Assembly (NCBI GenBank): GCA_020445765.1
Contig: JAGRFY010000044.1
Span: 18,740 to 82,739, forward strand
Source: Rhodocyclaceae bacterium
GTDB taxonomy: Bacteria; Pseudomonadota; Gammaproteobacteria; Burkholderiales; Rhodocyclaceae
Reading direction: 5' to 3'
DNA: 64,000 bases
Shown one piece after another: positions 18,371 through 49,654 of this stretch. Position 1 is the stretch's first letter. Every line of letters starts with the position of its first letter. The translations under genes were made by a program, and so were the position numbers. The notes under the pieces were generated by a model. That model was not told where the DNA came from and made no database searches. It worked only from the letters and a program-made list of their open reading frames with translations.

Positions 18371-18411
18371 TTGACCATCATCACCGGGCCGTGACCCGGC
18401 GGCGCTAGGCT
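18371..18411 (+). promoter_or_regulatory. FNR-like dyad with -10 box
   Basis: TTGAC-CATC-ATCAC (18371-18384) lies 31 bp, centre to centre, before TAGGCT (18406-18411). This matches a class II FNR/Crp promoter reading into the lipoprotein gene. Confidence 0.5.
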
Positions 18412-18486
18412 CGCCGGCATGAATGTCGATACGACAGGGGATGAGTGCAGGCACGCCCATCGGTGGGCCGCAACTCGTCCGAATGC

Positions 18487-19041
18487 ATGATCCACCGCAG
18501 GCAGACATCTCGCGGTCGAGCGGCTGTGCGGCTGGCTGGCGTCTTCGTGATCGCTGGCTGTGCGCACCAGGCAGCGCCGACTCAGACCATCGAGGTCCGT
18601 GTCGAGGCCGATTCGCAGAGTTGGGCCGGGCCGCTGTCTTGTCGAGCCACCAACGCCGCCGGCTCGTGGGCGTTCTCGGCCCCGGGAACGGTCACGCTGC
18701 TGCCATCGGCATCGTCACTGCAAATCGCCTGCCAAGCGCCGGATGGCGCATCCGCCGAGCCCAGCGTCACGCCACCCGATGCGTCTTCGACGCGTCAGCG
18801 CTCGAACCAGGGGGCAGCGACCGGCGCCAAGGTGGGTGCGGGCGCAGGCGTCGCGCTGGGCATTGCCGCAGCGCCGGTCATGGGGGGTGCCTTTGCCGTG
18901 CTCATCGCGGTAGGCGCCGCCATGAAAGGCGGCGAAATCGGAGGGATCGTCGGGGCACTCGGTCGTGGCGGGCAGATCCGATATCCGAGCCCGGTGGTTC
19001 TCCATATCCGGAGCAGGCCGTCCGATCGCACCGACCAGTAG
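18487..19041 (+). CDS. glycine-rich lipoprotein of unknown function
   Basis: The protein has 184 residues from the ATG at 18487. A twin-arginine-like basic start leads to a hydrophobic run ending in the lipobox VIAGC (Cys at about 25). The middle has no recognisable domain. The C-terminal part has an alanine/glycine-rich stretch (GAKVGAGAGVALGIAAAPVMGG) that could be a hydrophobic hairpin. A GTG at 18445 would add 14 residues; the ATG gives a normal-length lipoprotein signal. An FNR-like promoter precedes it, so it may belong to the low-oxygen regulon. Confidence 0.6.
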   Translation: MIHRRQTSRGRAAVRLAGVFVIAGCAHQAAPTQTIEVRVEADSQSWAGPLSCRATNAAGSWAFSAPGTVTLLPSASSLQIACQAPDGASAEPSVTPPDASSTRQRSNQGAATGAKVGAGAGVALGIAAAPVMGGAFAVLIAVGAAMKGGEIGGIVGALGRGGQIRYPSPVVLHIRSRPSDRTDQ

Positions 19042-19265
19042 GCCGCTGGATTCCTCGCAGCTGGATTCCTCGTCACCGCAAGCGCTGTCGACAGCGCCAG
19101 GAAAGAGCGCTGCGGCGAGGCGCAGGGTCGCGTCGCGCTTGTTTGTCTTTCCCGAGGTCCCCGCCGACCGGACGGAAAGGTGACTCGCGGCAACCTCGCC
19201 TGCCGATGACGACCCGTGCAATCCCGCGCCTTCGGCGGCCGGGATGACGAGCGATCGCGCCACGA

Positions 19266-22304: not shown

Positions 22305-22345
22305 TTGACGTTCGTCACCCGATGTCGGAGCCCGGTCGCTAGCAT
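22305..22345 (+). promoter_or_regulatory. FNR-like dyad with -10 box
   Basis: TTGAC-GTTC-GTCAC (22305-22318), with perfectly symmetric TGAC and GTCA halves, is centred 31 bp before TAGCAT (22340-22345). The predicted start of transcription near 22352 leaves a 45-nt leader before the BCAM0308-family gene. Confidence 0.55.
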
Positions 22346-22396: not shown

Positions 22397-22882
22397 ATGA
22401 TGGACACGTCCGGCAAGTACTGGCGCCCGATCCGACGCGACGAATTGCGGCCGGAGCGCATTCACGACCCTTACCGAGCTCACTTCAAGTTCGCCGACGG
22501 CACGCGCTGCCCGGATTGCGGTGCGGTGTTCGTTCATGGACGTTGGCAGTGGTCCGCACAGGCACCCGCGCATGCGGCCCTGTGCCCTGCATGCCACCGC
22601 ATCCGGGACGGATTGCCCGCCGGCTACCTGACACTTTCGGGTCCGTTCGTCGCACGCCACCGTGACGAACTGGTGCGCCTGATGCGCCATCACGAGTCGC
22701 ACGAGAAGAACGAGCACCCGCTCGAACGAATCATGGCCGTCGACGACCAGGACGGAAGCCTGGTGGTAACGACCACGGACATCCATATTGCTCGTCAACT
22801 GGGCGATGCACTGCACGACGCCTACAAGGGTGAGCTCGCCTATCACTACAATGAAGCGGAGAATCTGTTGAGGATCAGTTAG
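22397..22882 (+). CDS. BCAM0308-family zinc-ribbon protein
   Basis: The protein has 161 residues. Two CxxC pairs (CPDC near residue 36 and CPAC near 66) form a predicted zinc ribbon like that of NMD3. The rest (RHRDELVRLMRHHESHEKNEHPLERIM, then DGSLVVTTTDIHIARQLGDALHDAY) matches proteins named after BCAM0308 of Burkholderia cenocepacia, a gene of the low-oxygen-activated (lxa) locus. The molecular role is unknown. An FNR-like promoter lies upstream and a GAGGAA ribosome site precedes the ATG. Confidence 0.8.
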   Translation: MMDTSGKYWRPIRRDELRPERIHDPYRAHFKFADGTRCPDCGAVFVHGRWQWSAQAPAHAALCPACHRIRDGLPAGYLTLSGPFVARHRDELVRLMRHHESHEKNEHPLERIMAVDDQDGSLVVTTTDIHIARQLGDALHDAYKGELAYHYNEAENLLRIS

Positions 22883-23849: not shown

Positions 23850-23891
23850 ATGATTTCACGGTCGTAGCGCCCGCACGATGACGCACATCAA
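23850..23891 (-). promoter_or_regulatory. FNR-like dyad with -10 box
   Basis: ATGAC-GCAC-ATCAA (23878-23891, plus-strand text) is centred 32 bp from AATCAT on the minus strand (23850-23855). It points towards the DUF1003 gene. The divergent phasin operon could also use the site, but no -10 is well placed on that side. Confidence 0.45.
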
Positions 23892-24058
23892 CTGCGTGCC
23901 CCTCGTGCGCGCACGAGTTCCTGCCGGCGAGCGCCGCACCTAGGCTTGCCATTGGCCCTTGCCGGTGGCCCCGGACAACACGAGCGCATCGAATGCCCCT
24001 GGCGACCACAGCCCGCGCCCGGATCAGGCCACACCGGAAACCGTGTCAGGAGGAGAAC

Positions 24059-24481
24059 ATGAGCAAGACCGTAAACGCCCCGATCGAGCCGCAAGCCCGC
24101 CACTTCGAGCGCACCCAGGCCCTCGCCTGTGCCGAATGGGAAACAGCCCGGCGCATCCTCGAGATCCAGAATGCCGGCCTGCACCGCTTCGTCGAGCTGC
24201 ACAGTGCGCACTTCCCTAAGCCCGGCAGGGAACTCGCCCGCCACCCGGGCAATCCGGCGATGCCTTGGGGCGACCTCTACGGCGAAATGGTCATCGGCAT
24301 GCTCGAATCCTCGGTCATCTCGATCGATGTGCTCGCCGCCATTCAAGCGGAGTTCGTGCGGCTGGCCCGTGAGGCACTTCCGCTCGTCAAGAGCGAGATG
24401 CTCGACGGGGTCGAGCAGATGAACCAGGCTTTCGCGTCCGTGTCCGCCACCCGTCCGGTTTCCATGAAAGAAGCCGCCTGA
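24059..24481 (+). CDS. phasin-family protein
   Basis: Phasins coat polyhydroxyalkanoate granules. The protein has 140 mostly helical residues; ACAEWETARRILEIQNAGLHRFVELHSA and LARHPGNPAMPWGDLYGEMVIGMLESS fit a phasin-like family rather than classical PhaP. The start at 24059 has an excellent AGGAGG-type ribosome site (CAGGAGGAGAAC). It leads a unit with a diguanylate cyclase (10-bp gap) and a Crp/Fnr regulator. Confidence 0.7.
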   Translation: MSKTVNAPIEPQARHFERTQALACAEWETARRILEIQNAGLHRFVELHSAHFPKPGRELARHPGNPAMPWGDLYGEMVIGMLESSVISIDVLAAIQAEFVRLAREALPLVKSEMLDGVEQMNQAFASVSATRPVSMKEAA

Positions 24482-24490: not shown

Positions 24491-25945
24491 ATGAGCACAC
24501 GAGCAAGCGTCCTCAGGAGTCCCGCATCGGATGATTCCGAATCACCCGAGCTGCCACGGGCAGGCGCGGACATCCATCGGGCGGGTCGGGTGGCACCCCC
24601 GAGCGCGAATCCCCTCGGTGCGCAGGCGCTGCTTGTGGTTGCACCCGACGGGACCATCGAATTTTGCAGCAGCGCGGCCCGCAGCCTGCTCGACGCGGAC
24701 GATTCGGCGCCAACCGGTTGCCATCTGACGCGATGGTTGCCGAACCTGCCGCTGCGCTCCAAGACGCCAGGCTACAACTGCGCCTACCTCGCGCTGCACT
24801 ACCCGCCCGGCGGCTGGCATGCCATCGAGGCGGTCACCGGCGGCGATCGCATCGTCTCGCTGGAGACCAGCTGTCTGGTGGTGCCCTTCGGCAGCAGCGC
24901 CCGAATCATCATGGGGCTGCGCACCGCGCCGGTCCGCGATGGCGTCGACGATCAGTTCCGCCGATTTCTCGCGAGTGTCGCCGCCAGCACCGAAGCGGTC
25001 GTCGTAACGGATCCGGCCGGTGTCGTCGAATACGTGAATCCGGCCTACGAGCGCCTCAGTGGCTGGTGCGCCGCCGAAGTCGTCGGACGATCGCGGGCTT
25101 CGATCGGCGTGCCCGAGGCCCGCAGGGCAGGAGACGCAACGACGACCACGCGCTGCACCCGGGCGATCAGGACCGAACAGACGCGCGCAGGCCAAGCGCT
25201 CTACCTCGAAGAGAAGGTCCGGCCGTTCACCGACCGGGGCGGGCGCGTGACTCACTACGTCAGCATGGCGCGCGACCTGACCGGCTGCATCCGCGCCGAG
25301 CGGATCCTGCAGTGGCGCGCCGACTACGATTGCCTGACCGGCCTCCCCAATCGACACATGCTGGTCGACCGCCTGCACCAGGAGATCGCCCGCGCTGCCC
25401 GCGAATGCGGTTCGATAACCGTGATCTGCGCCGACATGGACCACCTCAAGGAGGTCAATGACCGTCACGGACATGCTGTCGGCGACATCGCATTGCGAAC
25501 GGTGGCCCACCAGCTTCAGAGCTGTGTGCGCGACATGGACATCGTCGGTCGCTACGGCGGCGACGAATTTCTGCTGATCGTGCCCGGCATGCACCGGCCA
25601 GACGATGTCGATGCCCTGCTCGCCAAGCTTGTTGACAGCGTGCGTGGGCTGAGCCTCGGCGCAAATCGACCGGTCGATGTCTCCCTGAGCGCGGGCGCGG
25701 CCACCTACCCCCGCGACGCACGCGAGAGTTCGCGCCTGATCGAAGCGGCCGATTCCGCGATGTATCGCGCGAAGCGGGCGGGTGGCGATCGACACTGGGG
25801 GTACCGGCCGGATCATCCGACCTGCGTGCAGTCGCGCCCGGAAGCCGCGAAACTGCCGTTCCTTCGTGTGTGGCCGGCTCCGGCCGGCGGGCAAGCACTG
25901 GCCGGCCGGCCGATTGCTGAATGGACTTCCGATGGCCAGCCCTGA
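24491..25945 (+). CDS. PAS-PAS-GGDEF diguanylate cyclase
   Basis: The enzyme makes cyclic di-GMP from two GTP. The protein has 484 residues. A PAS-like segment is at about 40-145 (LLVVAPDGTIEFCSSAARSLL), and a second PAS at about 155-270 (AVVVTDPAGVVEYVNPAYERLSGW). The GGDEF domain runs from about 272 to 440. The active-site signature is GGDEF at 356-360, and the RxxD inhibitory site is intact at R347-D350, so product inhibition is likely. No membrane span is visible, so it should be cytosolic. It overlaps the Crp/Fnr gene by 14 bp. Confidence 0.92.
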   Translation: MSTRASVLRSPASDDSESPELPRAGADIHRAGRVAPPSANPLGAQALLVVAPDGTIEFCSSAARSLLDADDSAPTGCHLTRWLPNLPLRSKTPGYNCAYLALHYPPGGWHAIEAVTGGDRIVSLETSCLVVPFGSSARIIMGLRTAPVRDGVDDQFRRFLASVAASTEAVVVTDPAGVVEYVNPAYERLSGWCAAEVVGRSRASIGVPEARRAGDATTTTRCTRAIRTEQTRAGQALYLEEKVRPFTDRGGRVTHYVSMARDLTGCIRAERILQWRADYDCLTGLPNRHMLVDRLHQEIARAARECGSITVICADMDHLKEVNDRHGHAVGDIALRTVAHQLQSCVRDMDIVGRYGGDEFLLIVPGMHRPDDVDALLAKLVDSVRGLSLGANRPVDVSLSAGAATYPRDARESSRLIEAADSAMYRAKRAGGDRHWGYRPDHPTCVQSRPEAAKLPFLRVWPAPAGGQALAGRPIAEWTSDGQP

Positions 25946-26795
25946 CACGATCGACGGTCGATGGGGCCCGGTCCACGAGGGCATAGGCGGCGATGCCGCA
26001 TGGCCCCCCCGCCGGCCGCGGTGCATCGAGCAGGCCGCTGCAGGCCGGGTGGCAGCGGCGGATCTCATGGCGTTTCTCGGATTGCCCGATGCGCCCGCAT
26101 ACCATGATCGCGCGTTCTTCGCCTGCCGCAGCATACGCCAGGGCGAAGTACCGGTTCGTACCGGCGATCCATGCCAATACCTCTACGTGGTGATTGGCGG
26201 AAGTCTGGCCATGCGCATCATCGAGACCGACGGCACGGAACGCGTGATCGGCTTCCAGCGTGCCGGCGACACACTGGGTCTCGACGGCCTGGCCACGGGA
26301 CACTACGCCAGCGAGTCGGTTGCGCTCGAGGCCGGAACCCTGGCGATCATCCCGCTCGGGGGACAGGGTCGGGGAGGGCAGCCTGCACACAGGCTGCCGA
26401 CCTTCGTCTGCCACCTGCTCGGGCGCCAGATCATCCGCGACAAGGCCACGCTTGCCGTGATGGCCGCCACCCACGCACTGACGAGGCTGGGTGCCTTCCT
26501 CCTCGACTGGCACGAGCATGGTGCGGACAACGGCCCCAGCTTCGAGTTGCCGATGAGCCGCAGCGCGATCGCTTCGTTCCTCGGTGTCAGCCGCGAGACG
26601 ATCAGCCGCGCCTGCGCCGATCTCGGGCGCGCAGGTATCGTCACGGTTCGCGGAAACCGCTTCACCATCGTCGATGCGGATGCCCTGCACCGCACTGCGG
26701 CAGCCGCGATGATGCCCTGCCCACATCACGGCCGGGAAGCCTCGGCCGGCCGCATGAGACTGAACACCGAGGTTCGCGAACTGCAGGCGCATTGA
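25932..26795 (+). CDS. Crp/Fnr-family regulator without FNR cluster cysteines
   Basis: The protein has 287 residues. The effector domain strongly resembles FNR (VIGFQRAGDTLGLDGLATGHY, about 106-125). The helix-turn-helix (about 208-235) has RETISRACADL, keeping E222, S225 and R226, the FNR residues that read TTGAT half-sites. The FNR iron-sulfur ligands are missing: there is no N-terminal CxxCxxxxxC, and the place of the fourth ligand reads TLAIIP. Cysteines 31, 65, 81 and 160 are scattered. It is the likely binder of the FNR-like dyads across this block. The ATG at 25932 overlaps the preceding gene. Confidence 0.88.
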   Translation: MASPDTIDGRWGPVHEGIGGDAAWPPRRPRCIEQAAAGRVAAADLMAFLGLPDAPAYHDRAFFACRSIRQGEVPVRTGDPCQYLYVVIGGSLAMRIIETDGTERVIGFQRAGDTLGLDGLATGHYASESVALEAGTLAIIPLGGQGRGGQPAHRLPTFVCHLLGRQIIRDKATLAVMAATHALTRLGAFLLDWHEHGADNGPSFELPMSRSAIASFLGVSRETISRACADLGRAGIVTVRGNRFTIVDADALHRTAAAAMMPCPHHGREASAGRMRLNTEVRELQAH

Positions 26796-26832
26796 CATCG
26801 CGCAATACCGCCATACGCGGGATCGGTAAGAT
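26792..26832 (+). promoter_or_regulatory. FNR-like dyad with -10 box
   Basis: TTGAC-ATCG-CGCAA (26792-26805) overlaps the stop codon of the Crp/Fnr gene and is centred 31 bp before TAAGAT (26827-26832). Transcription would start near 26840, about 60 nt before the kinase ATG. Confidence 0.45.
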
Positions 26833-26900: not shown

Positions 26901-28355
26901 ATGAACAGTAACGATACGGACGGCTTCCTGGGCGTCGTCGAGGCATCGGTCGATCCAATGCTGATCGCCGACGCGGTTGGCCGCATCCTCTACGCCAACC
27001 CGGCCTGCACGAACCTGTTCGGATATGCCCACGAGGTAATGCCGACGCTCACCATCGGCGACCTGATTCCAGAGCACCTTCGCGAATGCCACGCCGCGCA
27101 CCTCGCCGAATTCCGGGGTGCGCCGCGATCGCGCCCGATGGGTGCGCATCTGGGCCATCCGCTCTACGGTCGTCGCGCCGACGGCACCCTGGTCCCGACC
27201 GAGATCAGTCTCAGTCCGCTGGGCGACGGACGGGTGCTCGCTGCGGTGCATGACATTTCCCAGCGCGTGCAGGCCGAGGAAGCCATGCGGCGATGCTCCG
27301 CGCGCTATGCGGGCCTGCTCGGTGCCATTCCGGACATCGTCGTCGAACTCGATGCCGAACACGTCCTGCGCTGGGGCAATGATGCGGCCAGATGCTTCTT
27401 CGGGGAGCAGATGGCGGGCACCGCGATCGGACGGTTCCAGGCATCGCCCGAACATTCGTTTCCCCGGACCACCGATGGTGCCGTGCACGAAGTCTGGTTC
27501 GTGCGAGGGGATGGCGATCAGCGCCTGCTGGCGTGGAGCTGCCGCGACGTCGGCGAAGTCAGCGGCGAGCCCGGGGGACTGATCTGCACGGCACGCGACG
27601 TCACCGAGCGCCATCGCGACGAACAGTCCCTGCGCGAGCTGCGTGCCCAGATGCGCCAGTTCCATGCCCTCCACGTCGCGGGCCAGACCCTGCGCAAGAT
27701 CTCGCACGAGCTCAACCAGCCGCTCGACGCCCTGTGCGCCTATGCCGCCGCGGCGCTGAAACTGCTCGAAGGTCCGGATCTCCGGGTCGCCCAGTTGCGC
27801 GCAGCCGTCGAAGGCTGCTGCGACGAGGCCGACCGGGCCGGGCAGGTGGCACGGGCGTTGTCGAGTTTCATGCATCGCGACGTCATTCCCCTGGCACCGA
27901 TCGACCTGGTCAGGGCCGCCGACAATGCAGTCCGGTTGTGCCGGGACGACGGCATCGACTGCCCGGACATCACAATCGACATCGCGCCGGACCTGTGGGC
28001 GGCCATCGGCAACCAGCAGCAGATCGAAAGCGTCCTGCACAACCTGCTCAGAAACAGCATCGAAGCGCTGCGGCTGGCCGGGCAGAGCACGCCGTCGGTG
28101 CGCATCGAAGCGCGCAACGACGCGCGACGCAGCGGCATCCAGGTCACCTTCAGCGACAATGGGCCGGGCATTGACCAAGCGAGCCAGACGAATGCATTCA
28201 CCCCCTTCTACACGACGCGACAAATGGGCGTCGGCCTTGGTCTGACAATCTCTCGCGCGCTGATCGAGGCGAGCGGCGGCGAACTTTGGTACGACGGCGA
28301 AGCAGCCCCGGGGGCGACCTTCCGCTTCACCTTGCCGGCGGAGTCGGGCGCATGA
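26901..28355 (+). CDS. PAS sensor histidine kinase, FixL-like
   Basis: The protein has 484 residues and no membrane span. PAS-A (about 8-120) contains LIPEHLRECHAAHL, in which H64 aligns by eye with the haem-ligand histidine of FixL. A second, more divergent PAS-like region spans about 135-235. The HisKA box is KISHELNQPLDAL with H269, and the ATPase domain has LHNLLRNSIEAL and DNGPGI. It overlaps the FixJ-like regulator by 4 bp and lies next to the Crp/Fnr gene, as fixLJ-fixK do. Oxygen sensing through haem is a good guess but not proven by the sequence. Confidence 0.9.
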   Translation: MNSNDTDGFLGVVEASVDPMLIADAVGRILYANPACTNLFGYAHEVMPTLTIGDLIPEHLRECHAAHLAEFRGAPRSRPMGAHLGHPLYGRRADGTLVPTEISLSPLGDGRVLAAVHDISQRVQAEEAMRRCSARYAGLLGAIPDIVVELDAEHVLRWGNDAARCFFGEQMAGTAIGRFQASPEHSFPRTTDGAVHEVWFVRGDGDQRLLAWSCRDVGEVSGEPGGLICTARDVTERHRDEQSLRELRAQMRQFHALHVAGQTLRKISHELNQPLDALCAYAAAALKLLEGPDLRVAQLRAAVEGCCDEADRAGQVARALSSFMHRDVIPLAPIDLVRAADNAVRLCRDDGIDCPDITIDIAPDLWAAIGNQQQIESVLHNLLRNSIEALRLAGQSTPSVRIEARNDARRSGIQVTFSDNGPGIDQASQTNAFTPFYTTRQMGVGLGLTISRALIEASGGELWYDGEAAPGATFRFTLPAESGA

Positions 28356-29011
28356 ACGCCGCCCCCGAGCCGACCGTCTTCGTCGTCGACGACGACGCCG
28401 GCGTGAGACGCAGCATGCGCATGCTGATGGAAGCCGCGGGTCATCCGGTAGCCTGCTTCGACAGTGCCGAGGCGTTCCTGCACGCCTGGCGCCCCGACTG
28501 GCACGGCTGCCTGGTGCTGGACGTCAGGATGAATGGCATGAGCGGATCGGCCTTGCATGAGATTCTGACGGCTCGTGGCATCCCGCTGCCGGTCATCTAT
28601 CTCACCGCCTACGCCGACGTGCCATGGACCGTGCAGGCGATGCGCCGCGGTGCCGTCGACGTGCTGGTCAAGCCGGCACAAGGACACGTGCTGCTGGCCG
28701 AGGTCGAGCGCATCCTCGCTGACCACTGCAAGTCGCCCCCGTCGACGGCATCCGACGGCATCGCGCTAGACGGCCTGACGCCACGGCAGACCGAGATCAT
28801 CAGGCTGGCAGTGGGGGGGGCCAGCAACAAGGAAATCGCACGCAGGCTCGGCATCAGCCACCGGACCGTGGAGTATCACCGCACGCAGATCCTCAACAAG
28901 ACCGGTGCGGCGTCCTTCCTCCAGATCGCCGCAAGCCTGCCCGGCGCTGCCGAAACCTCGGGCAAGGCGTCAGCGGGCGAATCCGCCGGACCGTCCGATT
29001 GGTCGGTGTGA
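28352..29011 (+). CDS. FixJ-family response regulator
   Basis: The protein has 219 residues. The receiver domain has DDD near residue 13, the phospho-acceptor aspartate in VLDVRMNGMSG and a lysine in VLVKPAQGH. The LuxR-type helix-turn-helix reads LTPRQTEIIRLAVGG followed by LGISHRTVEYHRTQILNKTG. The start is the ATG at 28352, coupled to the kinase stop (ATGA). It is convergent with lon. Confidence 0.92.
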   Translation: MNAAPEPTVFVVDDDAGVRRSMRMLMEAAGHPVACFDSAEAFLHAWRPDWHGCLVLDVRMNGMSGSALHEILTARGIPLPVIYLTAYADVPWTVQAMRRGAVDVLVKPAQGHVLLAEVERILADHCKSPPSTASDGIALDGLTPRQTEIIRLAVGGASNKEIARRLGISHRTVEYHRTQILNKTGAASFLQIAASLPGAAETSGKASAGESAGPSDWSV

Positions 29012-32962: not shown

Positions 32963-33003
32963 AATCTACGGCATGCGATCGGCGCACGAGTGATGGAGAT
33001 CAA
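32963..33003 (-). promoter_or_regulatory. FNR-like dyad with -10 box
   Basis: GTGAT-GGAG-ATCAA (32990-33003, plus-strand text), one of the best matches in the window, is centred 31 bp from TAGATT on the minus strand (32963-32968). It reads into the repeat-protein gene. Confidence 0.55.
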
Positions 33004-34002: not shown

Positions 34003-34062
34003 ATCGTAGTCATGCGGCGGGATCGGAAAAGCACAACTAGGATGACCCTTGACGATCGTCAC
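34003..34062 (-). promoter_or_regulatory. palindromic FNR-like dyad upstream of hsp20
   Basis: TTGAC-GATC-GTCAC (34049-34062) contains the perfect palindrome TGACGATCGTCA. The nearest plausible -10 on the minus strand is TACGAT (34003-34008), about 50 bp away. That would fit a class I position (near -61.5) rather than the class II spacing seen elsewhere. Confidence 0.4.
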
Positions 34063-35134: not shown

Positions 35135-35175
35135 ATTTTGATTTGCGACCTGATCGGCGCTGTGACATCGCTCAA
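35135..35175 (-). promoter_or_regulatory. FNR-like dyad with -10 box
   Basis: GTGAC-ATCG-CTCAA (35162-35175, plus-strand text) is centred 31 bp from CAAAAT on the minus strand (35135-35140). It would drive the small-ORF/ACP/GNAT operon. Confidence 0.5.
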
Positions 35176-39318: not shown

Positions 39319-39360
39319 ATCCTATCCGACCGAGCGCGGCCCGATCGCGACATCCGTCAA
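39319..39360 (-). promoter_or_regulatory. FNR-like dyad with -10 box
   Basis: GCGAC-ATCC-GTCAA (39347-39360, plus-strand text) is centred 32 bp from TAGGAT on the minus strand (39319-39324). It reads into the phosphoribosyltransferase gene. Confidence 0.45.
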
Positions 39361-40178: not shown

Positions 40179-40317
40179 GCTAGCGCCAGATCGTAGGAAA
40201 CTTCGATGATGCCCCCTTTCCCGCGGACGGCGAATGGGACATTCTCGACGCAGCGGCGTCACTGCGGCCTCTACTGCAGGCCGAACACGCCTTGCTTGTG
40301 AAGCCATTCGCTCATTC

Positions 40318-42373: not shown

Positions 42374-42835
42374 TCACTGCTGAATCGACAGGACGTAGTA
42401 GACGAGTTCCAGGATGCGCCCACGGACCGCCTTCTCGTATTCACCTCGAAACGCTTCGGGCGTCTGCGGCAGGTCCATCAGGTAGCGGTCGCCCCAGACG
42501 GGCATGTCACGGTCGCCGTGTCCAGCGACCAGGGCCCGGCCGTCGATCACCTGATACACATGGAAGAACGGAAAGGTGCCCGCCTTGAGATCGGGGTACT
42601 GGCCACCGTTCCTCGCCGAGATGGTGGTCAGGTCTGCGGGCTTTGGCGTCATGTAGGCGGCAAGCGCTCCGTTGCCTTTGCCGCCGACACCGTGACAGGC
42701 CATGCATGACAACCGGTACTCGTCGGCGCCGATGGCCTCGTCTTCCGCGACCACGTTCGATGTCCCGACCAACAGCAGCAGGGCGATCCCGATGCTGCAA
42801 CGCTTTGCCGAAAGAGCCGAATTTCCCTTGTTCAT
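42374..42835 (-). CDS. mono-haem c-type cytochrome (second gene of pair)
   Basis: The periplasmic protein has 153 residues. A signal peptide ends near NVVAED. The haem site is C44-M-A-C47-H48, and the likely axial methionine is in DRDMPVWGDRY. The protein pairs with the similar cytochrome just upstream (126-bp gap, same direction). Both share GGKGNGA/GGKGDGS, KPADLTT/APADLTV and YQVIDGR/YAVIDGR segments, showing duplication. They probably carry electrons to a periplasmic oxidase or reductase. The ATG at 42835 follows GGAGTGACG. Confidence 0.88.
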   Translation of the reverse strand: MNKGNSALSAKRCSIGIALLLLVGTSNVVAEDEAIGADEYRLSCMACHGVGGKGNGALAAYMTPKPADLTTISARNGGQYPDLKAGTFPFFHVYQVIDGRALVAGHGDRDMPVWGDRYLMDLPQTPEAFRGEYEKAVRGRILELVYYVLSIQQ

Positions 42836-42961
42836 CAGCGTCACTCCGTAACATGCCCGACCCTTGTCGCCGGCCTACATGCCTCTGGGCCGACCGGGCC
42901 TGGACCGTGCGTGGTCGATCCGGCCGTCGCCGATCACCTGCCGCGCCGTCCGACGACCGCG

Positions 42962-43405
42962 CTACTTCTCCTGAATCCGGCTCAGATAGTCGATCAGGGC
43001 AAGAATCCGGACCCGTGCGAACATTTCCATGTCATAGGGCATGTCAACGAAATACGACGCCGCCTCGGTGGTTTCTCCCAGGTAGCGCCTGCCCCAGATC
43101 GGCATTTCGCGACCGCCATGGCTCTTGATCGCCTCGCGGCCGTCGATCACCGCGTAGACGCGGTCGACCGGAAAGACGCCGCCGTTGTTGCGTGCGAGGA
43201 CGGTCAGGTCGGCTGGCGCCACCTTGAGCAGATCGAGAACGCTACCGTCCCCCTTGCCGCCTTCACCGTGGCACACGACGCACTTGTCGCGGAACTCGGC
43301 TTTGCCGAGATCCGGCGTCTCTGCGCCGGCAATCCTCACGGCGACACAATTCATCGCGGCGACGAGCGCCGCGACGCGCATGAACGTGATCCTTGCTTTC
43401 ACCAC
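42962..43405 (-). CDS. mono-haem c-type cytochrome (first gene of pair)
   Basis: The periplasmic protein has 147 residues. The signal peptide ends near RIAGAE, the haem site is C42-V-V-C45-H46, and the axial methionine is probably in GREMPIWGRRY. The start is a GTG at 43405 directly after AGGAGGTC, a better site than any ATG nearby. An FNR-like promoter precedes it, fitting a role in low-oxygen respiration. Confidence 0.88.
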   Translation of the reverse strand: MVKARITFMRVAALVAAMNCVAVRIAGAETPDLGKAEFRDKCVVCHGEGGKGDGSVLDLLKVAPADLTVLARNNGGVFPVDRVYAVIDGREAIKSHGGREMPIWGRRYLGETTEAASYFVDMPYDMEMFARVRILALIDYLSRIQEK

Positions 43406-43459
43406 GACCTCCTCGCATTGACAACGTCCCCTCGAATCGAGACTCGGGACCGCAGATCA

Positions 43460-43502
43460 AGTATCCGCCGCAGCACTGGTGCGGTGGCGTGAGCTTTGTC
43501 AA
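43460..43502 (-). promoter_or_regulatory. FNR-like dyad with -10 box
   Basis: GTGAG-CTTT-GTCAA (43489-43502, plus-strand text) is centred 33 bp from GATACT on the minus strand (43460-43465). It reads into the cytochrome c pair. Confidence 0.45.
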
Positions 43503-43792
43503 CGGTGTTGCTGGCGGCGGCGAGGTCGCGCCGGGGCAATGCCTTGCCCGCGCCCGCGTGACCCCACCTTGCGCTGACAGGTCCGGACAGCGGCCGACAT
43601 CGGCCGACGACGCGCGGGCAATCTCGATTCTCACCAGGAATTTATCGACGTCAGCGTCGAGGGCACCGGGTTTGAGAAGATGAACCTGCAGGACGGGCCT
43701 GCCAAATCCTTCGCCGATCCGGGCAGCGCCGATGGCGGCGAGGTGGCATTCCGCGGACCGGATCGCACCCAGGGGCCCGTGCGCTTGAAGCG
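43503..43792. other. upstream region of pncA
   Basis: A short rightward frame (43680-43796, 38 codons) overlaps the pncA start by 4 bp. It has no good ribosome site and I do not call it a gene. Confidence 0.35.
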
Positions 43793-44404
43793 ATGATGGC
43801 CAGAGAACTGATCGCAACGGAAACGATCGCGTTGTCGCCGGGCGATGCGCTGCTTGTCGTGGACGTGCAGAACGATTTCCTGCCGGGCGGTGCGCTTGCG
43901 GTCCCTTGCGGCGACCGCGTGATCCCTGTGATCAACGCCTATCTGCATCGCTTCCGCTTGCGCGGCTACCCGGTGTTCGCCACCCGCGACTGGCACCCCG
44001 CGGATCACTGTTCCTTTCTTGCAGAGGGCGGGCCATGGCCACCCCATTGCATCGCGAATACCGGTGGCGCCGGATTTCCGACCGATCTTGCCCTGCCGGC
44101 CGACCTGCAGCCGATTTCGAAGGCAACGGCCAGGGCGCCGGACAGTTATTCAGGATTTGCCGGCACCGATCTGGCGGATCGCCTCCGGGAGGCTGGCGTG
44201 AAACGCCTCTTCGTTGCTGGTCTGGCTACGGACTACTGTGTTCTGCACACCGTCTGCGACGCCCTGGCGGAAGGGTTTGCGGTGGTGTTGCTGGTGGACG
44301 CGGTACGCGCGGTCAATGCCAGAGCCCACGATGGCGACGCTGCCATCGCCGAAATGACAAGCCGAGGCGCAGTCTCTGCAACGTCGGAGCAAATACCGAA
44401 TTGA
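43793..44404 (+). CDS. pncA: nicotinamidase
   Basis: PncA hydrolyses nicotinamide to nicotinate in NAD salvage. The protein has 203 residues. The catalytic aspartate is in LLVVDVQNDFLPGG, the lysine in PISKATARAPDSYSGF and the nucleophilic cysteine in GLATDYCVLHT; the metal site DWHPADHCSF is intact. It overlaps the next gene by 4 bp, giving a two-step nicotinamide-to-NaMN pathway in one operon. Confidence 0.94.
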   Translation: MMARELIATETIALSPGDALLVVDVQNDFLPGGALAVPCGDRVIPVINAYLHRFRLRGYPVFATRDWHPADHCSFLAEGGPWPPHCIANTGGAGFPTDLALPADLQPISKATARAPDSYSGFAGTDLADRLREAGVKRLFVAGLATDYCVLHTVCDALAEGFAVVLLVDAVRAVNARAHDGDAAIAEMTSRGAVSATSEQIPN

Positions 44405-45567
44405 ATGACGACGGCCTGCTGCTGACCGACCTCTACCAGCTCACGATGCTGCAGTCCTATTTCGAGCAGGGGATGAACGACATGGCCGTGTTCGAGTTCT
44501 TCGTCCGAAAGCTGCCACCGGGACGCAACTTCCTGATCGCCGGCGGCCTGGAGCAGGTCGTCGAATTTCTGGCGCGGGCGCACTTCAGCGCCACCGAACT
44601 CGACTGGCTGGCAAGCTGCGGGCGCTTTCGGAAAGGGTTCGTCGACTCGCTTGCAGACTGGCGCTTCTCCGGCGCCGTAGACGCCATGCCCGAAGGAACC
44701 GTGTTCTTCCCGGACGAACCCATCCTGCGGGTCGTCGCGCCGCTACGGGAAGCTCAGCTTGTCGAAACGCGCCTCATCAACCTGCTGCAGTTCCAGACCA
44801 TGGTTGCGTCCAAGGCAGTGCGTTGCGTGCTCGCTGCCGAAGGACGGCGCCTGATCGACTTCGGACTGCGACGCGCGCACGGGTCCGAGGCCGGCCTCCT
44901 GTCGGCCCGCGCCAGCTACCTCGCGGGCTTCGCTGGCACGGCAACGGTGCTTGCGGGCATGCGCTGGAACATTCCGTTGTTCGGCACGATGGCCCATTCC
45001 TACATCCAGGCCCATGATCGCGAGCAGGACGCGTTCGAGCACTTTGCCCGCACCTACCCGGCAGGCACGACGCTGCTGGTCGATACCTATGACACCGATA
45101 TCGCGGTCCGGCAATTGGTGAGTCTTGCACAGCGCTTGCAGCATGAAGGCATCACGATCGGCGCGGTACGAATCGACAGCGGTGATCTGCGCGCACATGC
45201 GGCGAACGTTCGACGCATCCTCGATGCGGGGCAGCTACCTCACGTGGCGATCATCGCAAGCGGCAATCTGGACGAGTACAAGATCCGCGACCTCGTGGCA
45301 GCGGATGCGCCGATCGATAGTTTCGGGGTCGGCACACGCATGAACACCTCCGCCGACGCCCCGTTCCTCGACTGCGCCTACAAGCTCCAGGAATACGCCG
45401 GCCGGCCGCGGCGCAAGCGATCGATCGGAAAGGCCACATGGCCGGGCAGAAAGCAGGTGTGGCGCGCCTACGGTGCAGATGGTCGGATGCTCTTTGACAC
45501 ACTGTCCCTGCAGCACGATCGGGCGGAAGGGGAGGCACTGCTGCAGCCCGTGACGGTCGGAGGGTAA
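44401..45567 (+). CDS. nicotinate phosphoribosyltransferase, C-terminally truncated by in-frame TAA
   Basis: This enzyme makes nicotinate mononucleotide from nicotinate and PRPP. The protein has 388 residues from a TTG at 44401 that shares TTGA with the pncA stop; the family N-terminus (DGLLLTDLYQLTMLQSYFEQGM) starts there and no ATG is available before it. Conserved parts include FGLRRAHGSEAGL, GTMAHSYI, AVRIDSGDLRAHA, IIASGNLDEYKI and FGVGTRMNTS. The frame stops at TAA (45565-45567), but the same frame continues for 54 codons with the family's usual C-terminal tail. It may be a nonsense mutation, a sequencing error or readthrough. Confidence 0.9.
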   Translation: MNDDGLLLTDLYQLTMLQSYFEQGMNDMAVFEFFVRKLPPGRNFLIAGGLEQVVEFLARAHFSATELDWLASCGRFRKGFVDSLADWRFSGAVDAMPEGTVFFPDEPILRVVAPLREAQLVETRLINLLQFQTMVASKAVRCVLAAEGRRLIDFGLRRAHGSEAGLLSARASYLAGFAGTATVLAGMRWNIPLFGTMAHSYIQAHDREQDAFEHFARTYPAGTTLLVDTYDTDIAVRQLVSLAQRLQHEGITIGAVRIDSGDLRAHAANVRRILDAGQLPHVAIIASGNLDEYKIRDLVAADAPIDSFGVGTRMNTSADAPFLDCAYKLQEYAGRPRRKRSIGKATWPGRKQVWRAYGADGRMLFDTLSLQHDRAEGEALLQPVTVGG

Positions 45568-45732
45568 CGAGTGGCCGAACTGCCGGCACTGTCCGCCATT
45601 CGCGACCGTGCCCGCGACCAGCTTCGGCAACTGCCTCAGCCCTTGCTGGAACTCGAAGCGGCACCTGCCCACCCCGTTCAGGTTTCGCGATCGCTGCACG
45701 ATCTCGCGCGCAAGCTTGATTGCGGCGCCTGA
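45568..45732 (+). other. detached C-terminal segment of nicotinate phosphoribosyltransferase
   Basis: In the same frame right after the TAA, 54 codons read RVAELPALSAIRDRARDQL and HPVQVSRSLHDLARKLD, the tail expected at the end of this enzyme. A GTG at 45571 could serve as a restart. Full-length translation would give 443 residues, close to family length. Confidence 0.65.
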
Positions 45733-46046
45733 CACGCGGGAAGCGGCGCACTGCGCCACCGTGAGGGACCGAATCGATGGCGCGGACCTTGCGGTCAGCA
45801 CGGCCGACCTGGCGTGGCTGAGCGCATTGTCCGGTGGTCGTCGCGCCATTCGGGAAAGCTTGCGATTCGCCCAGTCGGATGCGCCTGACTCCGCTTGCTC
45901 GATTGTATGGTTCAGCCTCCAACGAGCGCGTTCCAGCTGGCACGGCGGCCGTGCGACCGCATTCTGGCGAATCGGGGATTTCAGGGTCGGCTGCCTGGTC
46001 AGAGCCGATCTTCGCCGCCTTCGCGCTCGGATCCGTGCGCAGTCGG
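45733..46046. other. 314-bp gap between convergent genes
   Basis: No coding frame, dyad or terminator-like hairpin with a U-tract is visible. Confidence 0.35.
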
Positions 46047-47963
46047 TCACAGCTCGGGCATGAGGCGGCTCAGGAGTTCGGAGAGCGACAGGGTGGCGAC
46101 CCCGAGCGCGGTGTCGGCGCCGCCGTAATAGAGGAACAAGGTGTCGCCGCGCACGATTGAGCCGCAGGAAAAGACGGCGTTCGGAACACGGCCGCGCCGC
46201 TCCCAGTCAGCCAGCGGTTCGAGAATGGGCGCATTGGTGCGCGCCAGGACGGTGCTCGCGTCGTCGGACAGCAGCGCCGCGCCAAGTCGGTAGGCGCGGT
46301 CTGAACCGACGCCGTGGTAGATCACGAGCCACCCGTGCGCGACTTCGAGCGGCGGACCTGCGATGCCGACCTTCACGGCGTCCCACATGCCGGGCCGGGG
46401 TGCCATCAGCGCGACGCAGCGGCTCACCGGATGCTCGGTCGGATCGAGCCCGCCGGGGTCGATGCAGATGCTGGGCTCGACGCGGTGCACGACCGCAAGC
46501 CTGCCGTCGATCCGCCGGGGGAAGAGACTCACGTCCTTGTCGCCGATGCCCTCGGGGGTCAGCAGCGTGGGCATGGTCCAGCAGTCGAAGCGGTGACGCA
46601 GGAAATCGCCGACCGCGATGCTGGCGAGCGCGCCACGCGTTTCGCGCAGGCCATCGTAGGCGGTGTAGCAGACGTGGACCCTGCCATCGACGACCACCGC
46701 TCGCGGATCCTCGCACCCGGAATAGGCGTTTGGCCCCCCGCGCTTGCCCTCCCACGGCAGGCGCGGCACGTAGACCGGATCGGGCAGGCGCTCATCGACC
46801 GTCAGGCCGTCGGCGAGCCGCGCATAGCCCAGCACCGAGGTGTTGTCGACGCCCTGGGCGCGGTACAGCAGATGGACCGAATCCTCGAGATCGACCGCGG
46901 CGGCATTGAAGACGCCGTTCGCTTCCCACGGGTGTTGCGGCTGCGGCGCCAGAATGGGATTGTCGGGATGGCGCTGCACGAATCGATCCAGGCCATCGGG
47001 CTCGAGCGCAGAGAGCAGGTGCGGAAGGTGGATGTGGGCGATCGCCGATGTCGTGTCCGCTGCGCCGTAGTAGAGATCCAGCGTCTCGCCGCGGCGCACG
47101 AGCCCGCTCGGGAAGACGATGTCGGGCACCATGCCGTAGCGTTCGTAGGCGGCTTCGGCGGTCAGCATGGGGTGGCGCGTGCAGCCCTTGACCCGCCGCG
47201 GATCATCGCGATCGAGCAGCACGGCTTCGATGCCGAAGACGCGCTGCCCGCCGCCGAAATAGTGCTGTATGTAGGAATAGGCAAGCAACCAGCCCTGATC
47301 GGTCGCGACCGGCACACCGCCCGCTTCGAGGTGGTCGCGCGGGCCGCGCATCGGGATGGCCACCCGATGCGCGGCAAGATTGGCGTGCCATTCGTCCCAA
47401 TAGGCGGACGTCCAGAAGTCCTCGACCGAGTCGGCGAGCGCGATGGCGATGGTAGCGGGCGGATCGTCGGTGTGCGCCGTCAGCAGCAGCGCGACCTTGC
47501 CATCCACCCGATCGGGAAAGAGGGCCGCGGCCTTGGCGTTGAAGGGGGTCACGAGATGCTTCTCGTGCAGCTCGGCCGGCCCGTCGCCGACCGCGGCCGC
47601 GACGCGGATGTTCGCGGCCGAGAATGGATAGCCGCCGACGGCGGTATAGAAGACGTACCACTTCCCCTCGAAGCGGGTCGCACGCGGATCCTCGCAGCCG
47701 AACTGATCCCAGGGTTCCGTCGGCACGATCACCTGGCGGCGGCAGCCGAAGCAGCCGCGGGCGTCGGTGACCGCATAGCCGACGCTCGAGCGACCGACAT
47801 GGGGTGTGACGAGCACGTCGGGGCGCGCCAGCGCGCGATAGAAGACATGTGCGTTGCCATCCGCGATGACGGGTGCGGGATTGAAGGTGGCCACCGACTC
47901 CCATGGATGAGCCTCGACGGGCAGAAGGATGGGGTTCTTCGCGGAGCGGGTGACGATGAACAT
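46047..47963 (-). CDS. tandem double-GH130 glycoside phosphorylase-like protein
   Basis: The protein has 638 residues and consists of two GH130 five-blade propeller domains (about 1-320 and 325-638). Each has the family's opening (KNPILLPVEAHPWES and DNPILAPQPQHPWEA) and the catalytic-site motif GCEDPRA (both copies intact), plus FPSGLVRRGETLDLYYGAADT or VFSCGSIVRGDTLFLYYGGADT near the end. GH130 enzymes are mostly beta-mannoside phosphorylases or hydrolases. A two-domain fusion is unusual. There is no signal peptide, so it is cytosolic. It lies 27 bp after the cupin-GH130 gene. Confidence 0.88.
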   Translation of the reverse strand: MFIVTRSAKNPILLPVEAHPWESVATFNPAPVIADGNAHVFYRALARPDVLVTPHVGRSSVGYAVTDARGCFGCRRQVIVPTEPWDQFGCEDPRATRFEGKWYVFYTAVGGYPFSAANIRVAAAVGDGPAELHEKHLVTPFNAKAAALFPDRVDGKVALLLTAHTDDPPATIAIALADSVEDFWTSAYWDEWHANLAAHRVAIPMRGPRDHLEAGGVPVATDQGWLLAYSYIQHYFGGGQRVFGIEAVLLDRDDPRRVKGCTRHPMLTAEAAYERYGMVPDIVFPSGLVRRGETLDLYYGAADTTSAIAHIHLPHLLSALEPDGLDRFVQRHPDNPILAPQPQHPWEANGVFNAAAVDLEDSVHLLYRAQGVDNTSVLGYARLADGLTVDERLPDPVYVPRLPWEGKRGGPNAYSGCEDPRAVVVDGRVHVCYTAYDGLRETRGALASIAVGDFLRHRFDCWTMPTLLTPEGIGDKDVSLFPRRIDGRLAVVHRVEPSICIDPGGLDPTEHPVSRCVALMAPRPGMWDAVKVGIAGPPLEVAHGWLVIYHGVGSDRAYRLGAALLSDDASTVLARTNAPILEPLADWERRGRVPNAVFSCGSIVRGDTLFLYYGGADTALGVATLSLSELLSRLMPEL

Positions 47964-47990
47964 GGCGCCTTCCCCGAATCGGCGACCGGA

Positions 47991-49391
47991 CTAGGCCTGT
48001 CCCGCCGCGATGGCGTGCACGAAGGCCGCCAGCGGCGTCGATGCCGCACACACCACGGTGTCGGCCGCGCCGTAATAGACGGTCAGTTGGTCGTCGCGGA
48101 TGACGGTGCCGCACGAATAGACGATGCCGGGCTTGATGCCTTCCGAAATTTCGTAAGGAACTTCCGGTTCGAGCACCGGGACCGGCGACCGGGCGATCAC
48201 CCTGCATGGATCCTCGCCATCGAGCAACATGGCGCCCAGCTTGTAGTAGCGCGGCTCGTAGACGTCCATGGCGTGATACAGCACGAGCCAGCCGAGAGAC
48301 GTGCGAATGGGCGGCGGCCCGATGCTGCGCATGCGTCGATGCCAGGCGCAGGGGCTATCCGGCAACAATTGGGGGTCGGGGCTCGCGAAATCCGCCACCG
48401 GGGCACCCTCGCCGAGGGGGTCATCGACGTAGGCCACACAGACGCGCCCGTCGTTGGCCGCGTGAAGGTTGTGAAACAGCGCGAACTTGCCCTTGATCCT
48501 TTCCGGGAACAAGGCCCAGTTCTTGTGCCGCTGCCCCGGCGGCGAAAGGTATTTCGGCGGGGAGAAGTTCCAGCGCTTGGCCTGCAGGTCGGCCACGGAA
48601 ATCGAGGTCAGGCCGACGCGCATCGAATCCCAGCCGTTGAATGCGTTGTAGGTCAGGTATACGCGGCCGTCGATCATGACCGCACGGGGGTCCTCGACGC
48701 CGGTCCAGCTACCGCCCGAGGCATAGGCGACCGGATCGAATCGCCCTGCGCGCGCCGGCATCGGGTTCTCGTGCGCGAAGACCGGAAACGGAAGACGCTC
48801 GTCGAGCGTCACGCCGTCATCGGAAGCGGCATACCCGAGTCGCGAGACCCCATCGGTGCCGATCGCGCGATAGAACAGATGGGTTCGTCCGCCTTCACGG
48901 ATGGCGGCCGGATTCATGACGGCCATTGCTTCCCACTGTGCATAGCCCGGATTGAGGACCGGATTGCCCTTTGCCCGGTGGAGCGCCAGGGCGCCGCACG
49001 GGTGGACGGGCGGCCGCGAGCGCCCGAAGTCATCCTCGACGCGAAAGATATCGTTCTCGTCGAATTCGCCGAAGCCGATTTCAAGCACGGCGAGGCCCCT
49101 GGGCCCGCCGCTGAGCCGATGCAGCGTGCCGACCGGAATCTCGATTTCGTCGCCGACCGAAACCGCATAGGAATGCGAGCCGAGGGTCACCTCGCCGTCG
49201 CCATCGATGACCCGCCACCACTCACTGCGCTTGGCATGCCGCTGCAATGAGAGTCGCTTTCCTGGCAGGAGGTAGAGGATCTTTACGGTCGAGGACTCAT
49301 TGACCGTGAATCGCTCGAAGCCACCCCACGGACGCTTTTCGTGGTGGTAGTGGGGCAATGGGCAATGGCGGTTCGACGCCGCGATGGTCAT
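47991..49391 (-). CDS. cupin (mannose-6-phosphate isomerase-like) fused to GH130
   Basis: The protein has 466 residues. Residues 1-120 are a type II mannose-6-phosphate isomerase cupin: KRPWGGFERF, then LQRHAKRSEWW, GDEIEIPVGTLHRL. From about 135 to the end is a GH130 domain with GNPVLNPGYAQWEA, GVEDPRAVMIDGRVYLTYNAF and IVYSCGTVIRDDQLTVYYGAADT. A mannose-related substrate is therefore likely. The ATG at 49391 is used here; a GTG or TTG at 49400/49397 lies closer to AAGGA. It heads a two-gene GH130 operon with a possible FNR-like promoter. Confidence 0.85.
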   Translation of the reverse strand: MTIAASNRHCPLPHYHHEKRPWGGFERFTVNESSTVKILYLLPGKRLSLQRHAKRSEWWRVIDGDGEVTLGSHSYAVSVGDEIEIPVGTLHRLSGGPRGLAVLEIGFGEFDENDIFRVEDDFGRSRPPVHPCGALALHRAKGNPVLNPGYAQWEAMAVMNPAAIREGGRTHLFYRAIGTDGVSRLGYAASDDGVTLDERLPFPVFAHENPMPARAGRFDPVAYASGGSWTGVEDPRAVMIDGRVYLTYNAFNGWDSMRVGLTSISVADLQAKRWNFSPPKYLSPPGQRHKNWALFPERIKGKFALFHNLHAANDGRVCVAYVDDPLGEGAPVADFASPDPQLLPDSPCAWHRRMRSIGPPPIRTSLGWLVLYHAMDVYEPRYYKLGAMLLDGEDPCRVIARSPVPVLEPEVPYEISEGIKPGIVYSCGTVIRDDQLTVYYGAADTVVCAASTPLAAFVHAIAAGQA

Positions 49392-49613
49392 GTTCAACAC
49401 GGGTTCCTTTCTCCCTTGCCGTGGTCGCCTCGTCCGGTGACGGGCCGCCTCACTTGCTGCTGCCGACTGCTGATTGCGGCTGCGCGCGCTCTGGCGAGGC
49501 GAATTGACAAGGTGGCGCAGGCTGAAACTTTCCGGCCCGACGTCCCGGGGACGACACTTGCGCCGCACCCTTGGCGACGCCGCGCCGACCCTGCCGCGCT
49601 CCACCGCGATCAA
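49392..49613. other. leader and upstream region of the GH130 operon
   Basis: An open frame continues upstream of the ATG but is arginine-rich and lacks conserved sequence, so I treat this part as untranslated. Confidence 0.35.
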
Positions 49614-49654
49614 AGCTTAGCCCCGCGCCCGGTGACTCCAGTGACGTTCATCAA
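49614..49654 (-). promoter_or_regulatory. FNR-like dyad, weak -10
   Basis: GTGAC-GTTC-ATCAA (49641-49654, plus-strand text) is centred 31 bp from TAAGCT on the minus strand (49614-49619). The dyad is good but the -10 is weak. It could serve the GH130 operon, the divergent acetyl-CoA synthetase operon, or both. Confidence 0.4.

What the first reader, a model, noticed from the sequence alone, without database searches (positions are those of the whole stretch)
18371..49654. A shared FNR-like operator with constant spacing to the -10 across the accessory block
Nine promoters (18371, 22305, 23878, 26792, 32990, 35162, 39347, 43489, 49641) have a dyad of the form xTGAx-N4-xTCAx whose centre is 31-33 bp from a plausible -10. 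A tenth dyad (34049) is in a class I-like position. The spacing equals that of class II FNR promoters. The genes include the BCAM0308-family, DUF1003, FixL-like kinase, repeat protein, ACP/GNAT, phosphoribosyltransferase, cytochrome c and GH130 genes. A constant distance on both strands is hard to get by chance, though I searched near known starts and some matches are weak.
Basis: partly seen in the sequence, partly recalled or inferred. Interest (0 to 1): 0.75.

Follow-up and report, generated by a model that had tools for sequence, protein, structure and literature searches.

The report
Low-oxygen survival block's shared control switch
A block of stress-survival genes in a Rhodocyclaceae bacterium carries its own likely oxygen-sensor relay and a shared DNA switch in front of many of its genes, so that the block probably turns on as one unit when oxygen runs low.

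Summary
The dyads are real. The block's intergenic DNA (6,368 bp) holds 9 exact TGAN6TCA dyads; shuffles average 0.76, maximum 4 of 1000. TANNNT starts exactly 28 bases past the centre at 4 of 15 dyad-directions, expected 0.07. In a congeneric genome 0 of 56 core bases changed, against 861 of 2720 around them.

The best candidate reader is not the canonical Fnr (contig C165) but a Cys-less FNR-related activator inside the block (26049-26795), in a conserved operon with FixL- and FixJ-like proteins. The dyad follows this gene: dyad plus -10 at 3 of 3 BCAM0308 promoters with it, 2 of 29 without. It reads as a FixLJ-FixK-type regulon captured in an lxa-like hypoxia block. Unexpected: the operator is asymmetric (mostly TTGA-N6-TCAC), oriented by promoter class. 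No expression or binding data exist.

The parts
18371..18384 (+). operator TTGACCATCATCAC, class II; TAGGCT -10 at 18406-18411, before lipoprotein-like ORF 18445-19041
   Evidence: offset 28; 14/14 identical in G104, surrounding alignment 56%; gene frame 88% identical without gaps
22305..22318 (+). operator TTGACGTTCGTCAC, class II; TAGCAT -10 at 22340-22345, before BCAM0308-family gene
   Evidence: offset 28 in own, G104 and G060
23878..23891 (+). operator ATGACGCACATCAA, class I-like towards the fixK operon (TAGGCT at 23941-23946, offset 56); also faces the DUF1003 gene without a TANNNT
   Evidence: core 8/8 kept in G104; dyad 173-177 bp from the gene in own, G104 and G060, TANNNT at 56 in own and G104 only; no dyad found in G115
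26792..26805 (+). operator TTGACATCGCGCAA (one core mismatch), class II; TAAGAT at 26827-26832, before fixL-like gene
   Evidence: dyad-like site 102 bp before the gene in 4 of 4 genomes, TANNNT at 28/28/29/29; exact core only in G115
32990..33003 (-). operator TTGATCTCCATCAC, class II; TAGATT at 32963-32968, before charged-repeat protein gene
   Evidence: offset 28 in own and G104
34049..34062 (-). operator GTGACGATCGTCAA, class I-like; TACGAT at 34003-34008, before hsp20
   Evidence: offset 47 in own, G104, G060 and G115
35162..35175 (-). operator TTGAGCGATGTCAC before ACP/GNAT genes; -10 unclear (CAAAAT at offset 28)
   Evidence: similar site TTGAGCAATGTCAT before the ACS-ACP-GNAT genes of G115; matrix score 16.0
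39347..39360 (-). operator TTGACGGATGTCGC (one core mismatch), class II; TAGGAT at 39319-39324, before phosphoribosyltransferase gene
   Evidence: offset 29 in own and G104, 28 with an exact core in G060; only 11.7 in the other-genera matrix
43489..43502 (-). operator TTGACAAAGCTCAC before cytochrome c gene; -10 unclear
   Evidence: matrix score 15.6; no TANNNT in offsets 0-63; no matching stretch found in G104
49641..49654 (.). two-way operator: class II towards GH130 genes (TAAGCT at 49614-49619, minus strand), class I-like towards the AMP-binding/E1/E2 genes (TAGGCT at 49694-49699, plus strand)
   Evidence: offsets 28 and 46; top-scoring site of the window, 18.4; not comparable with G104
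24059..24481 (+). unknown ORF, first gene of the regulator operon
   Evidence: order unk24-DGC-FixK-FixL-FixJ kept in G104, G060, G115
24590..25945 (+). PAS-GGDEF protein (diguanylate cyclase domain)
   Evidence: Pfam PF00990 1.5e-43
26049..26795 (+). FixK-like CRP/FNR activator, no FNR-type Fe-S cysteines, helix VSRETISR
26901..28355 (+). FixL-like kinase with heme-type PAS (His64)
28352..29011 (+). FixJ-like response regulator
   Evidence: NCBIfam FixJ 9.2e-45, 152.7 bits, below the equivalog cut-off 255
22397..22882 (+). BCAM0308-family (lxa) protein
   Evidence: NF040826 188.7 bits, cut-off 100

Best explanation
The block is a self-contained low-oxygen survival regulon of a Rhodocyclaceae bacterium. 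A heme-PAS FixL-like kinase senses low oxygen (inferred) and phosphorylates a FixJ-like regulator (inferred). FixJ raises transcription of the regulator operon unk24-dgc-fixK-fixL-fixJ (inferred). The FixK-like CRP/FNR protein then binds the 14-bp dyad TTGA-N6-TCA(C/T) in front of many operons of the block (inferred). At six promoters the dyad centre lies 28-29 bp before a TANNNT -10, the class II position that stands in for a -35 element; at three it lies 46-56 bp before the -10, as in class I activation (the sequence layout is shown, the function inferred). A dyad before fixL would give positive feedback (inferred). The operator is read by the local regulator rather than by the Fe-S Fnr on contig C165 (supported by co-occurrence, not proven).
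For: Dyad enrichment and spacer. Offset 28 at 4 of 15 directions; 4 of 10 whole-genome composite hits in this 1.3% of the genome. Core conservation against G104: 0/56 changed versus 861/2720, P 1e-9; without the two poorly aligned regions 0/40 versus 430/1811, P 3e-5. Orthologous promoters keep dyad and offset: hsp20b 47 in 4 of 4 genomes, fixL 28/28/29/29 in 4 of 4, BCAM0308 28 in 3 of 3, PRT 28-29 in 3 of 3. A matrix from G060 and G115 sites only, at 15.5 or more: 8 hits in 6,368 bp of block intergenic DNA, 0 in 36,276 bp of own background intergenic DNA, 0 in 65,840 bp of intergenic DNA of regulator-minus lxa loci; 200 column-shuffled matrices give at most 1 in the block. Co-occurrence: dyad plus TANNNT at 28-29 at BCAM0308 in 3 of 3 promoters with the regulator and 2 of 29 without, P 0.002; intergenic dyads own block + G060 + G115 17 in 16,849 bp, regulator-minus lxa loci 7 in 53,268 bp (convergent gaps counted in the own block only). 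Regulator operon in 4 of 4 carriers. Recognition helix E..SR as in FNR, no FNR Cys motif. PAS His64 aligns with a His of DosP and of 10jx (its heme role in DosP is recalled) and is invariant in 4.
Against: No binding, expression or start-site data. Only 4 of 395 family genomes carry the regulator, so co-occurrence rests on 4 genomes, 2 of them congeneric, and some regulator-minus genomes are incomplete. In G115 no dyad was found before unk24, and its intergenic dyads (2 against 0.58 expected) mean little on their own. The fixL and phosphoribosyltransferase dyads are inexact; the first is not in the matrix's top 28 and the second scores 11.7. The matrix also finds coding hits at 15.5 or more: 1 in the window, 3 in 277,244 bp of own background coding DNA, 5 in 387,882 bp of regulator-minus loci. 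Exact dyads are also above chance in the own background sample (11 in 31,932 bp, expected 3.2), and one (C73, ATPase genes) is kept in G170, which lacks the regulator and BCAM0308, so another protein reads similar sites. NCBIfam FixK and FixL equivalog cut-offs are missed by far (49 of 300 bits, 175 of 850).
Confidence: 0.7

Rival explanations
1. The canonical Fe-S Fnr of this genome (contig C165) reads the block's dyads directly; the local FixK-like protein has other targets.
For: Fnr with the CxxCxxxxxC motif is present and has an E..SR helix; TTGA-N6-TCAC is one base from the FNR box. In B. cenocepacia an Anr-like protein, BCAM0049, is the proposed oxygen regulator linked to lxa (passages of PMC6127331).
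Against: 182 of 199 family genomes carry a protein that matches P0001 at E 1e-15 or better, at about 30% identity in nearly all listed rows; the four of these that I read (L001, L065, L066, L068) have the FNR cysteine motif. Yet 23 lxa loci without the close regulator have dyads at chance level and no matrix hit of 15.5 or more in 65,840 intergenic bp. No block dyad is a symmetric FNR box, while 28 lie elsewhere in the genome.
Confidence: 0.2
2. Another CRP/FNR paralogue (Dnr- or Crp-type; 12 HTH_Crp_2 hits over the cut-off) reads the sites.
For: Paralogues with E..SR helices exist, e.g. L003, L006, L008, L011; the DNR box resembles the FNR box (passages of PMC1274295); the C73 dyad is kept in a genome without the regulator.
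Against: It does not explain why dyads follow the block-encoded regulator across genera.
Confidence: 0.07
3. The dyads are chance matches or inert ancestral sequence.
Against: Shuffle, offset, conservation and other-genera matrix tests all speak against it.
Confidence: 0.02

Closest known systems
FixLJ-FixK2 regulon of Bradyrhizobium diazoefficiens (FixK2 box TTGA/C-N6-T/GCAA)
   Same: FixLJ-controlled CRP/FNR activator; 14-bp imperfect dyad; targets include Hsp20, universal stress protein, GroEL and cytochrome c genes (passages, with part of Table 2, of PMC9104804).
   Different: Here the regulator genes lie inside the regulated block with a GGDEF protein; the operator's second half is mostly TCAC, not TCAA/GCAA; the protein groups with FNR and misses the FixK equivalog cut-off.
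lxa locus of Burkholderia cenocepacia
   Same: BCAM0308-family protein; in B. cenocepacia a 50-gene cluster with stress proteins that low oxygen switches on (passages of PMC6127331).
   Different: Gene content was not compared here beyond the BCAM0308 family. The word 'motif' does not occur in the three lxa-related papers searched (PMC6127331, PMC3759415, PMC9104464); the original lxa paper is not held, so whether it reports an operator is unknown to me.
FixLJ of Burkholderia dolosa
   Same: FixLJ switches on a CRP/FNR-type fixK in low oxygen (passages of PMC5234846).
   Different: fixK has a distant gene number from fixLJ there, and is the homologue of Anr-like BCAM0049.
FNR and DNR regulons of Rhodocyclaceae MAGs
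   Same: Predicted FNR/DNR sites in the same bacterial family (passages of PMC8510549, 12 of 19 places shown); box TTGATnnnnATCAA (PMC1274295).
   Different: Those predictions, in the passages seen, centre on denitrification; the block's sites always have one imperfect half.

Membership tests
FixLJ-FixK-type regulon | CRP/FNR regulator lacking the FNR cysteine cluster | tested here: met
   No CxxC-type motif in 4 orthologues; the own Fnr and E. coli FNR have it
FixLJ-FixK-type regulon | fixL and fixJ linked to the regulator, FixL PAS with heme-ligand His | tested here: met
   Gene order in 4 of 4 genomes; His64 invariant and aligned with the DosP/10jx His; heme binding itself not tested
FixLJ-FixK-type regulon | member of the FixK equivalog family | tested here: not met
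   NF050806 49.2 bits against cut-off 300; groups with FNR in a tree without rhizobial FixK
FixLJ-FixK-type regulon | FixJ activates fixK in low oxygen | not testable with these tools
   needs expression data
FNR class II promoter set | dyad centre about 40-41.5 bp before the start, i.e. about 28-30 bp before a -10 (definition recalled) | tested here: met
   6 promoters at 28-29; 3 others at 46-56, 2 unclear
FNR class II promoter set | symmetric TTGAT-N4-ATCAA-type box | tested here: not met
   0 TTGAYN4RTCAA in the window; 28 in the genome
lxa locus | BCAM0308-family member over the curated cut-off | tested here: met
   188.7 bits against 100
lxa locus | induction by low oxygen | not testable with these tools
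   no expression data

The most novel reading that the evidence does not exclude
The regulator is an FNR relative that lost its Fe-S cysteines and gained a CRP-type Arg/Lys just before the recognition-helix Glu (VSRETISR; LSKETVSR in the other genera) while keeping FNR's Ser-Arg. It therefore reads a hybrid operator, one FNR half (TTGA) and mostly one CRP half (GTGA). The orientation of that asymmetric operator encodes the activation class: TTGA is promoter-distal at all six class II promoters and promoter-proximal at all three class I-like promoters of the window, as if the stronger half always lies under the subunit that offers activating region 1 to the RNA polymerase alpha subunit.
Probability: 0.3. 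Interest if true: 0.7.

Novelty: new variant of a known kind. Interest (0 to 1): 0.5.

Why it matters
It ties an lxa-type hypoxia block in environmental Betaproteobacteria to a concrete sensor-kinase-activator cascade and an operator. It also shows that the 23 examined lxa-type loci of the same family without the regulator do not show this operator above chance, so control of such blocks seems to change with the regulator they carry. If the hybrid, orientation-coded operator is right, it gives a natural test of how CRP/FNR subunit orientation sets class I against class II activation.

Tried and rejected
The sample was not random: several contigs were taken because earlier searches had found CRP-type or composite hits on them. 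Searches used 16 of its 18 stretches (313,520 bp).

TTGA as a -35 element: rejected. In the class II sites TTGA starts 35 bp before the -10 hexamer, which would be a 29-bp spacer; this follows from the offsets.

Dyad 22092: rejected as a likely chance match.

More distant FixK-like proteins at order and phylum level: by tblastn of the block's proteins no BCAM0308 or lxa-type cluster showed in the stretches fetched around them, some of them short; not pursued. Plasmids: one remote hit.

Regulon outside the block: C53 cytochrome c and C73 ATPase sites are conserved, but both have the opposite orientation to the block's class II sites, and C73 is kept in a genome without the regulator; left open.

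Literature searches for a hybrid or asymmetric CRP/FNR operator and for FixK in Rhodocyclaceae showed no such report in their listings; passages of PMC8510549 and PMC1802743 did not either. The library lacks most subscription journals.
Full report
Setting. The window lies on contig C35 of a 4.84 Mb, 210-contig genome. My own gene caller and Pfam/NCBIfam give, between 18 and 55 kb: two cation P-type ATPases, a BCAM0308-family (lxa) protein, DUF1003, a PAS-GGDEF protein, a CRP/FNR regulator, FixL- and FixJ-like proteins, Lon, two Hsp20, GNAT, two ACP, a phosphoribosyltransferase, a hybrid kinase, two cytochromes c, isochorismatase- and NAPRTase-family proteins, two GH130, and AMP-binding/E1/E2 proteins. 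Core genes (accA, pheS, pheT, L20) lie outside.

Is the motif there and is it more than chance? Yes. Nine exact TGAN6TCA dyads sit in the block's 6,368 intergenic bases (shuffle mean 0.76, maximum 4 of 1000), and TGA is the top of 64 half-sites at spacer 6; the block's 27,624 coding bases hold 3.

Is the spacing constant? At 4 of 15 dyad-directions a TANNNT starts 28 bases past the centre, and no other offset from 0 to 63 occurs more than once. Adding the two inexact sites gives six promoters at 28-29: lipoprotein, BCAM0308, fixL, charged-repeat protein, phosphoribosyltransferase, GH130. Three others have their only TANNNT at 46 (AMP-binding operon), 47 (hsp20b) and 56 (fixK operon). For the ACP/GNAT and cytochrome c dyads no TANNNT lies in range, although the ACP site has a counterpart in G115. 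The phosphoribosyltransferase site scores only 11.7 in the other-genera matrix and the fixL site is not among its top 28; these two rest on conservation.

Is it conserved? Against G104, the 56 core bases of seven dyads are unchanged, including the imperfect halves, while 861 of 2,720 surrounding bases differ (gaps counted; the fixL stretch includes the end of fixK); 22092 has decayed to 3 of 8. Two of the seven surroundings align poorly (50% and 56%), which inflates the contrast; without them it is 0 of 40 against 430 of 1,811, P 3e-5. The GH130, cytochrome c and ACP sites could not be compared: the search of window 32,000-50,000 in G104 found no match over them. In G060 and G115, whose regulator is 55% identical, orthologous promoters keep the dyad and its distance: hsp20b at offset 47 in 4 of 4 genomes, fixL 102 bp before the gene in 4 of 4 (inexact in 3 of them), BCAM0308 in 3 of 3 carriers, phosphoribosyltransferase in 3 of 3. 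The training sites were themselves found with the TGA/TCA core and at orthologous genes, so the core is given; what is tested is the outer letters and the background, which is 0 intergenic and 3 coding hits in 313,520 bp of own sample.

Who reads it? All four carriers of the close regulator (4 of 395 family genomes) have the operon unk24-dgc-fixK-fixL-fixJ. Among 32 BCAM0308 promoters (31 genomes, G003 twice), dyad plus TANNNT at 28-29 occurs in 3 of 3 with the regulator and 2 of 29 without; one more of the 29 has a dyad without it; the two (L041, L042) have TTGAT-N4-GTCAA. In 23 lxa loci without the regulator, intergenic dyads are at chance: 7 observed, 8.0 expected. In many of these BCAM0308 may lie inside an operon, which I did not sort out. 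The own genome's background sample is itself above chance, 11 against 3.2, which fits an ordinary Fnr/Dnr regulon: 28 symmetric boxes genome-wide, of which I looked at 15; some precede genes that read like nirS, norC and napF (my reading of the translated starts). One outside site (C73) is kept in G170, which lacks the regulator. So similar dyads can be read by other proteins, and the case for the local regulator is comparative, not direct.

What is the regulator? Its four orthologues form one clade (100/100) on a long stem (1.15) in a group (98/95) with E. coli FNR and the own Fnr, apart from most other paralogues; branching inside that group is unresolved, the root is a midpoint, and three more distant relatives (L120, L121, L125) also show no cysteine motif in the N-terminal stretch printed. 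The helix is VSRETISR (own, G104) or LSKETVSR (G060, G115), against LKLETVSR in the own Fnr. In CRP/FNR proteins, Arg at the position before this Glu goes with G as the third base of the half-site, i.e. GTGA (passages of PMC1274295). That is the basis of the hybrid-operator idea.

Orientation. TTGA is distal at 6 of 6 promoters with class II spacing and proximal at 3 of 3 with class I-like spacing (Fisher P 0.012); the two dyads without a clear -10 also have TTGA distal. The pattern was noticed after looking, comes from nine promoters, G060's unk24 site is symmetric, and the two conserved sites outside the block (C53, C73) have the opposite orientation at offset 28. The link to activating region 1 rests on recalled CRP biology.

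Compared with what is known. The closest parallel is the Bradyrhizobium FixLJ-FixK2 regulon, whose FixK2 boxes precede Hsp20, universal stress and cytochrome c genes (PMC9104804). In Burkholderia, FixLJ switches on fixK in low oxygen (PMC5234846) and an Anr-like protein is linked to lxa (PMC6127331). FNR and DNR regulons were predicted in Rhodocyclaceae MAGs (PMC8510549). Of these papers I read only passages. The present case is a new variant: the cascade is packed inside the block it seems to control, and the operator is asymmetric.

Noticed in passing
18423-19247 and 18445-19041: The ATG ORF at 18423 is probably not the gene: the overlapping frame 18445-19041 has a lipobox-like stretch and is 88% identical to G104 without gaps, against 77% with gaps for the other.
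   Followed up: yes
L091 (own contig C73, about 33155): Dyad CTGACCTCGCTCAA plus TAGCAT precedes a gene that reads like an alternative (N-type) F-ATPase beta subunit; dyad and -10 are kept in G104, and the dyad in G170, which lacks the FixK-like gene.
   Followed up: partly
L090 (own contig C53, about 20452): Dyad ATGATCTGCGTCAA plus TAGCGT precedes a further cytochrome c-like gene; the dyad core is kept in G104, with a second dyad-like element upstream.
   Followed up: partly
L093 (own contig C123, 776-815): TTGACATAGATCAA with TACTAT at offset 28 precedes a gene that reads like a benzoyl-CoA reductase/2-hydroxyacyl-CoA dehydratase subunit; perhaps an Fnr target.
   Followed up: no
L072:1477-2684 and L076:11639-12873: G060 and G115 each carry a second, diverged FixL/FixJ-like pair close to the regulator operon.
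   Followed up: no
L055 (G003 contig C33): Two BCAM0308-family genes about 13.5 kb apart in one genome.
   Followed up: no
same-genus genomes G049, G140, G170, G194: BCAM0308 was not found in 4 of the 6 genus genomes searched, and the close FixK-like orthologue not in the same 4; both are in the window's genome and G104. The block is patchy, perhaps mobile or often lost; three of the four genomes are 80-93% complete.
   Followed up: partly
57032-57707: PIN-domain toxin and Phd/YefM antitoxin pair between the block and pheST, near tRNA-Pro at 58701.
   Followed up: no
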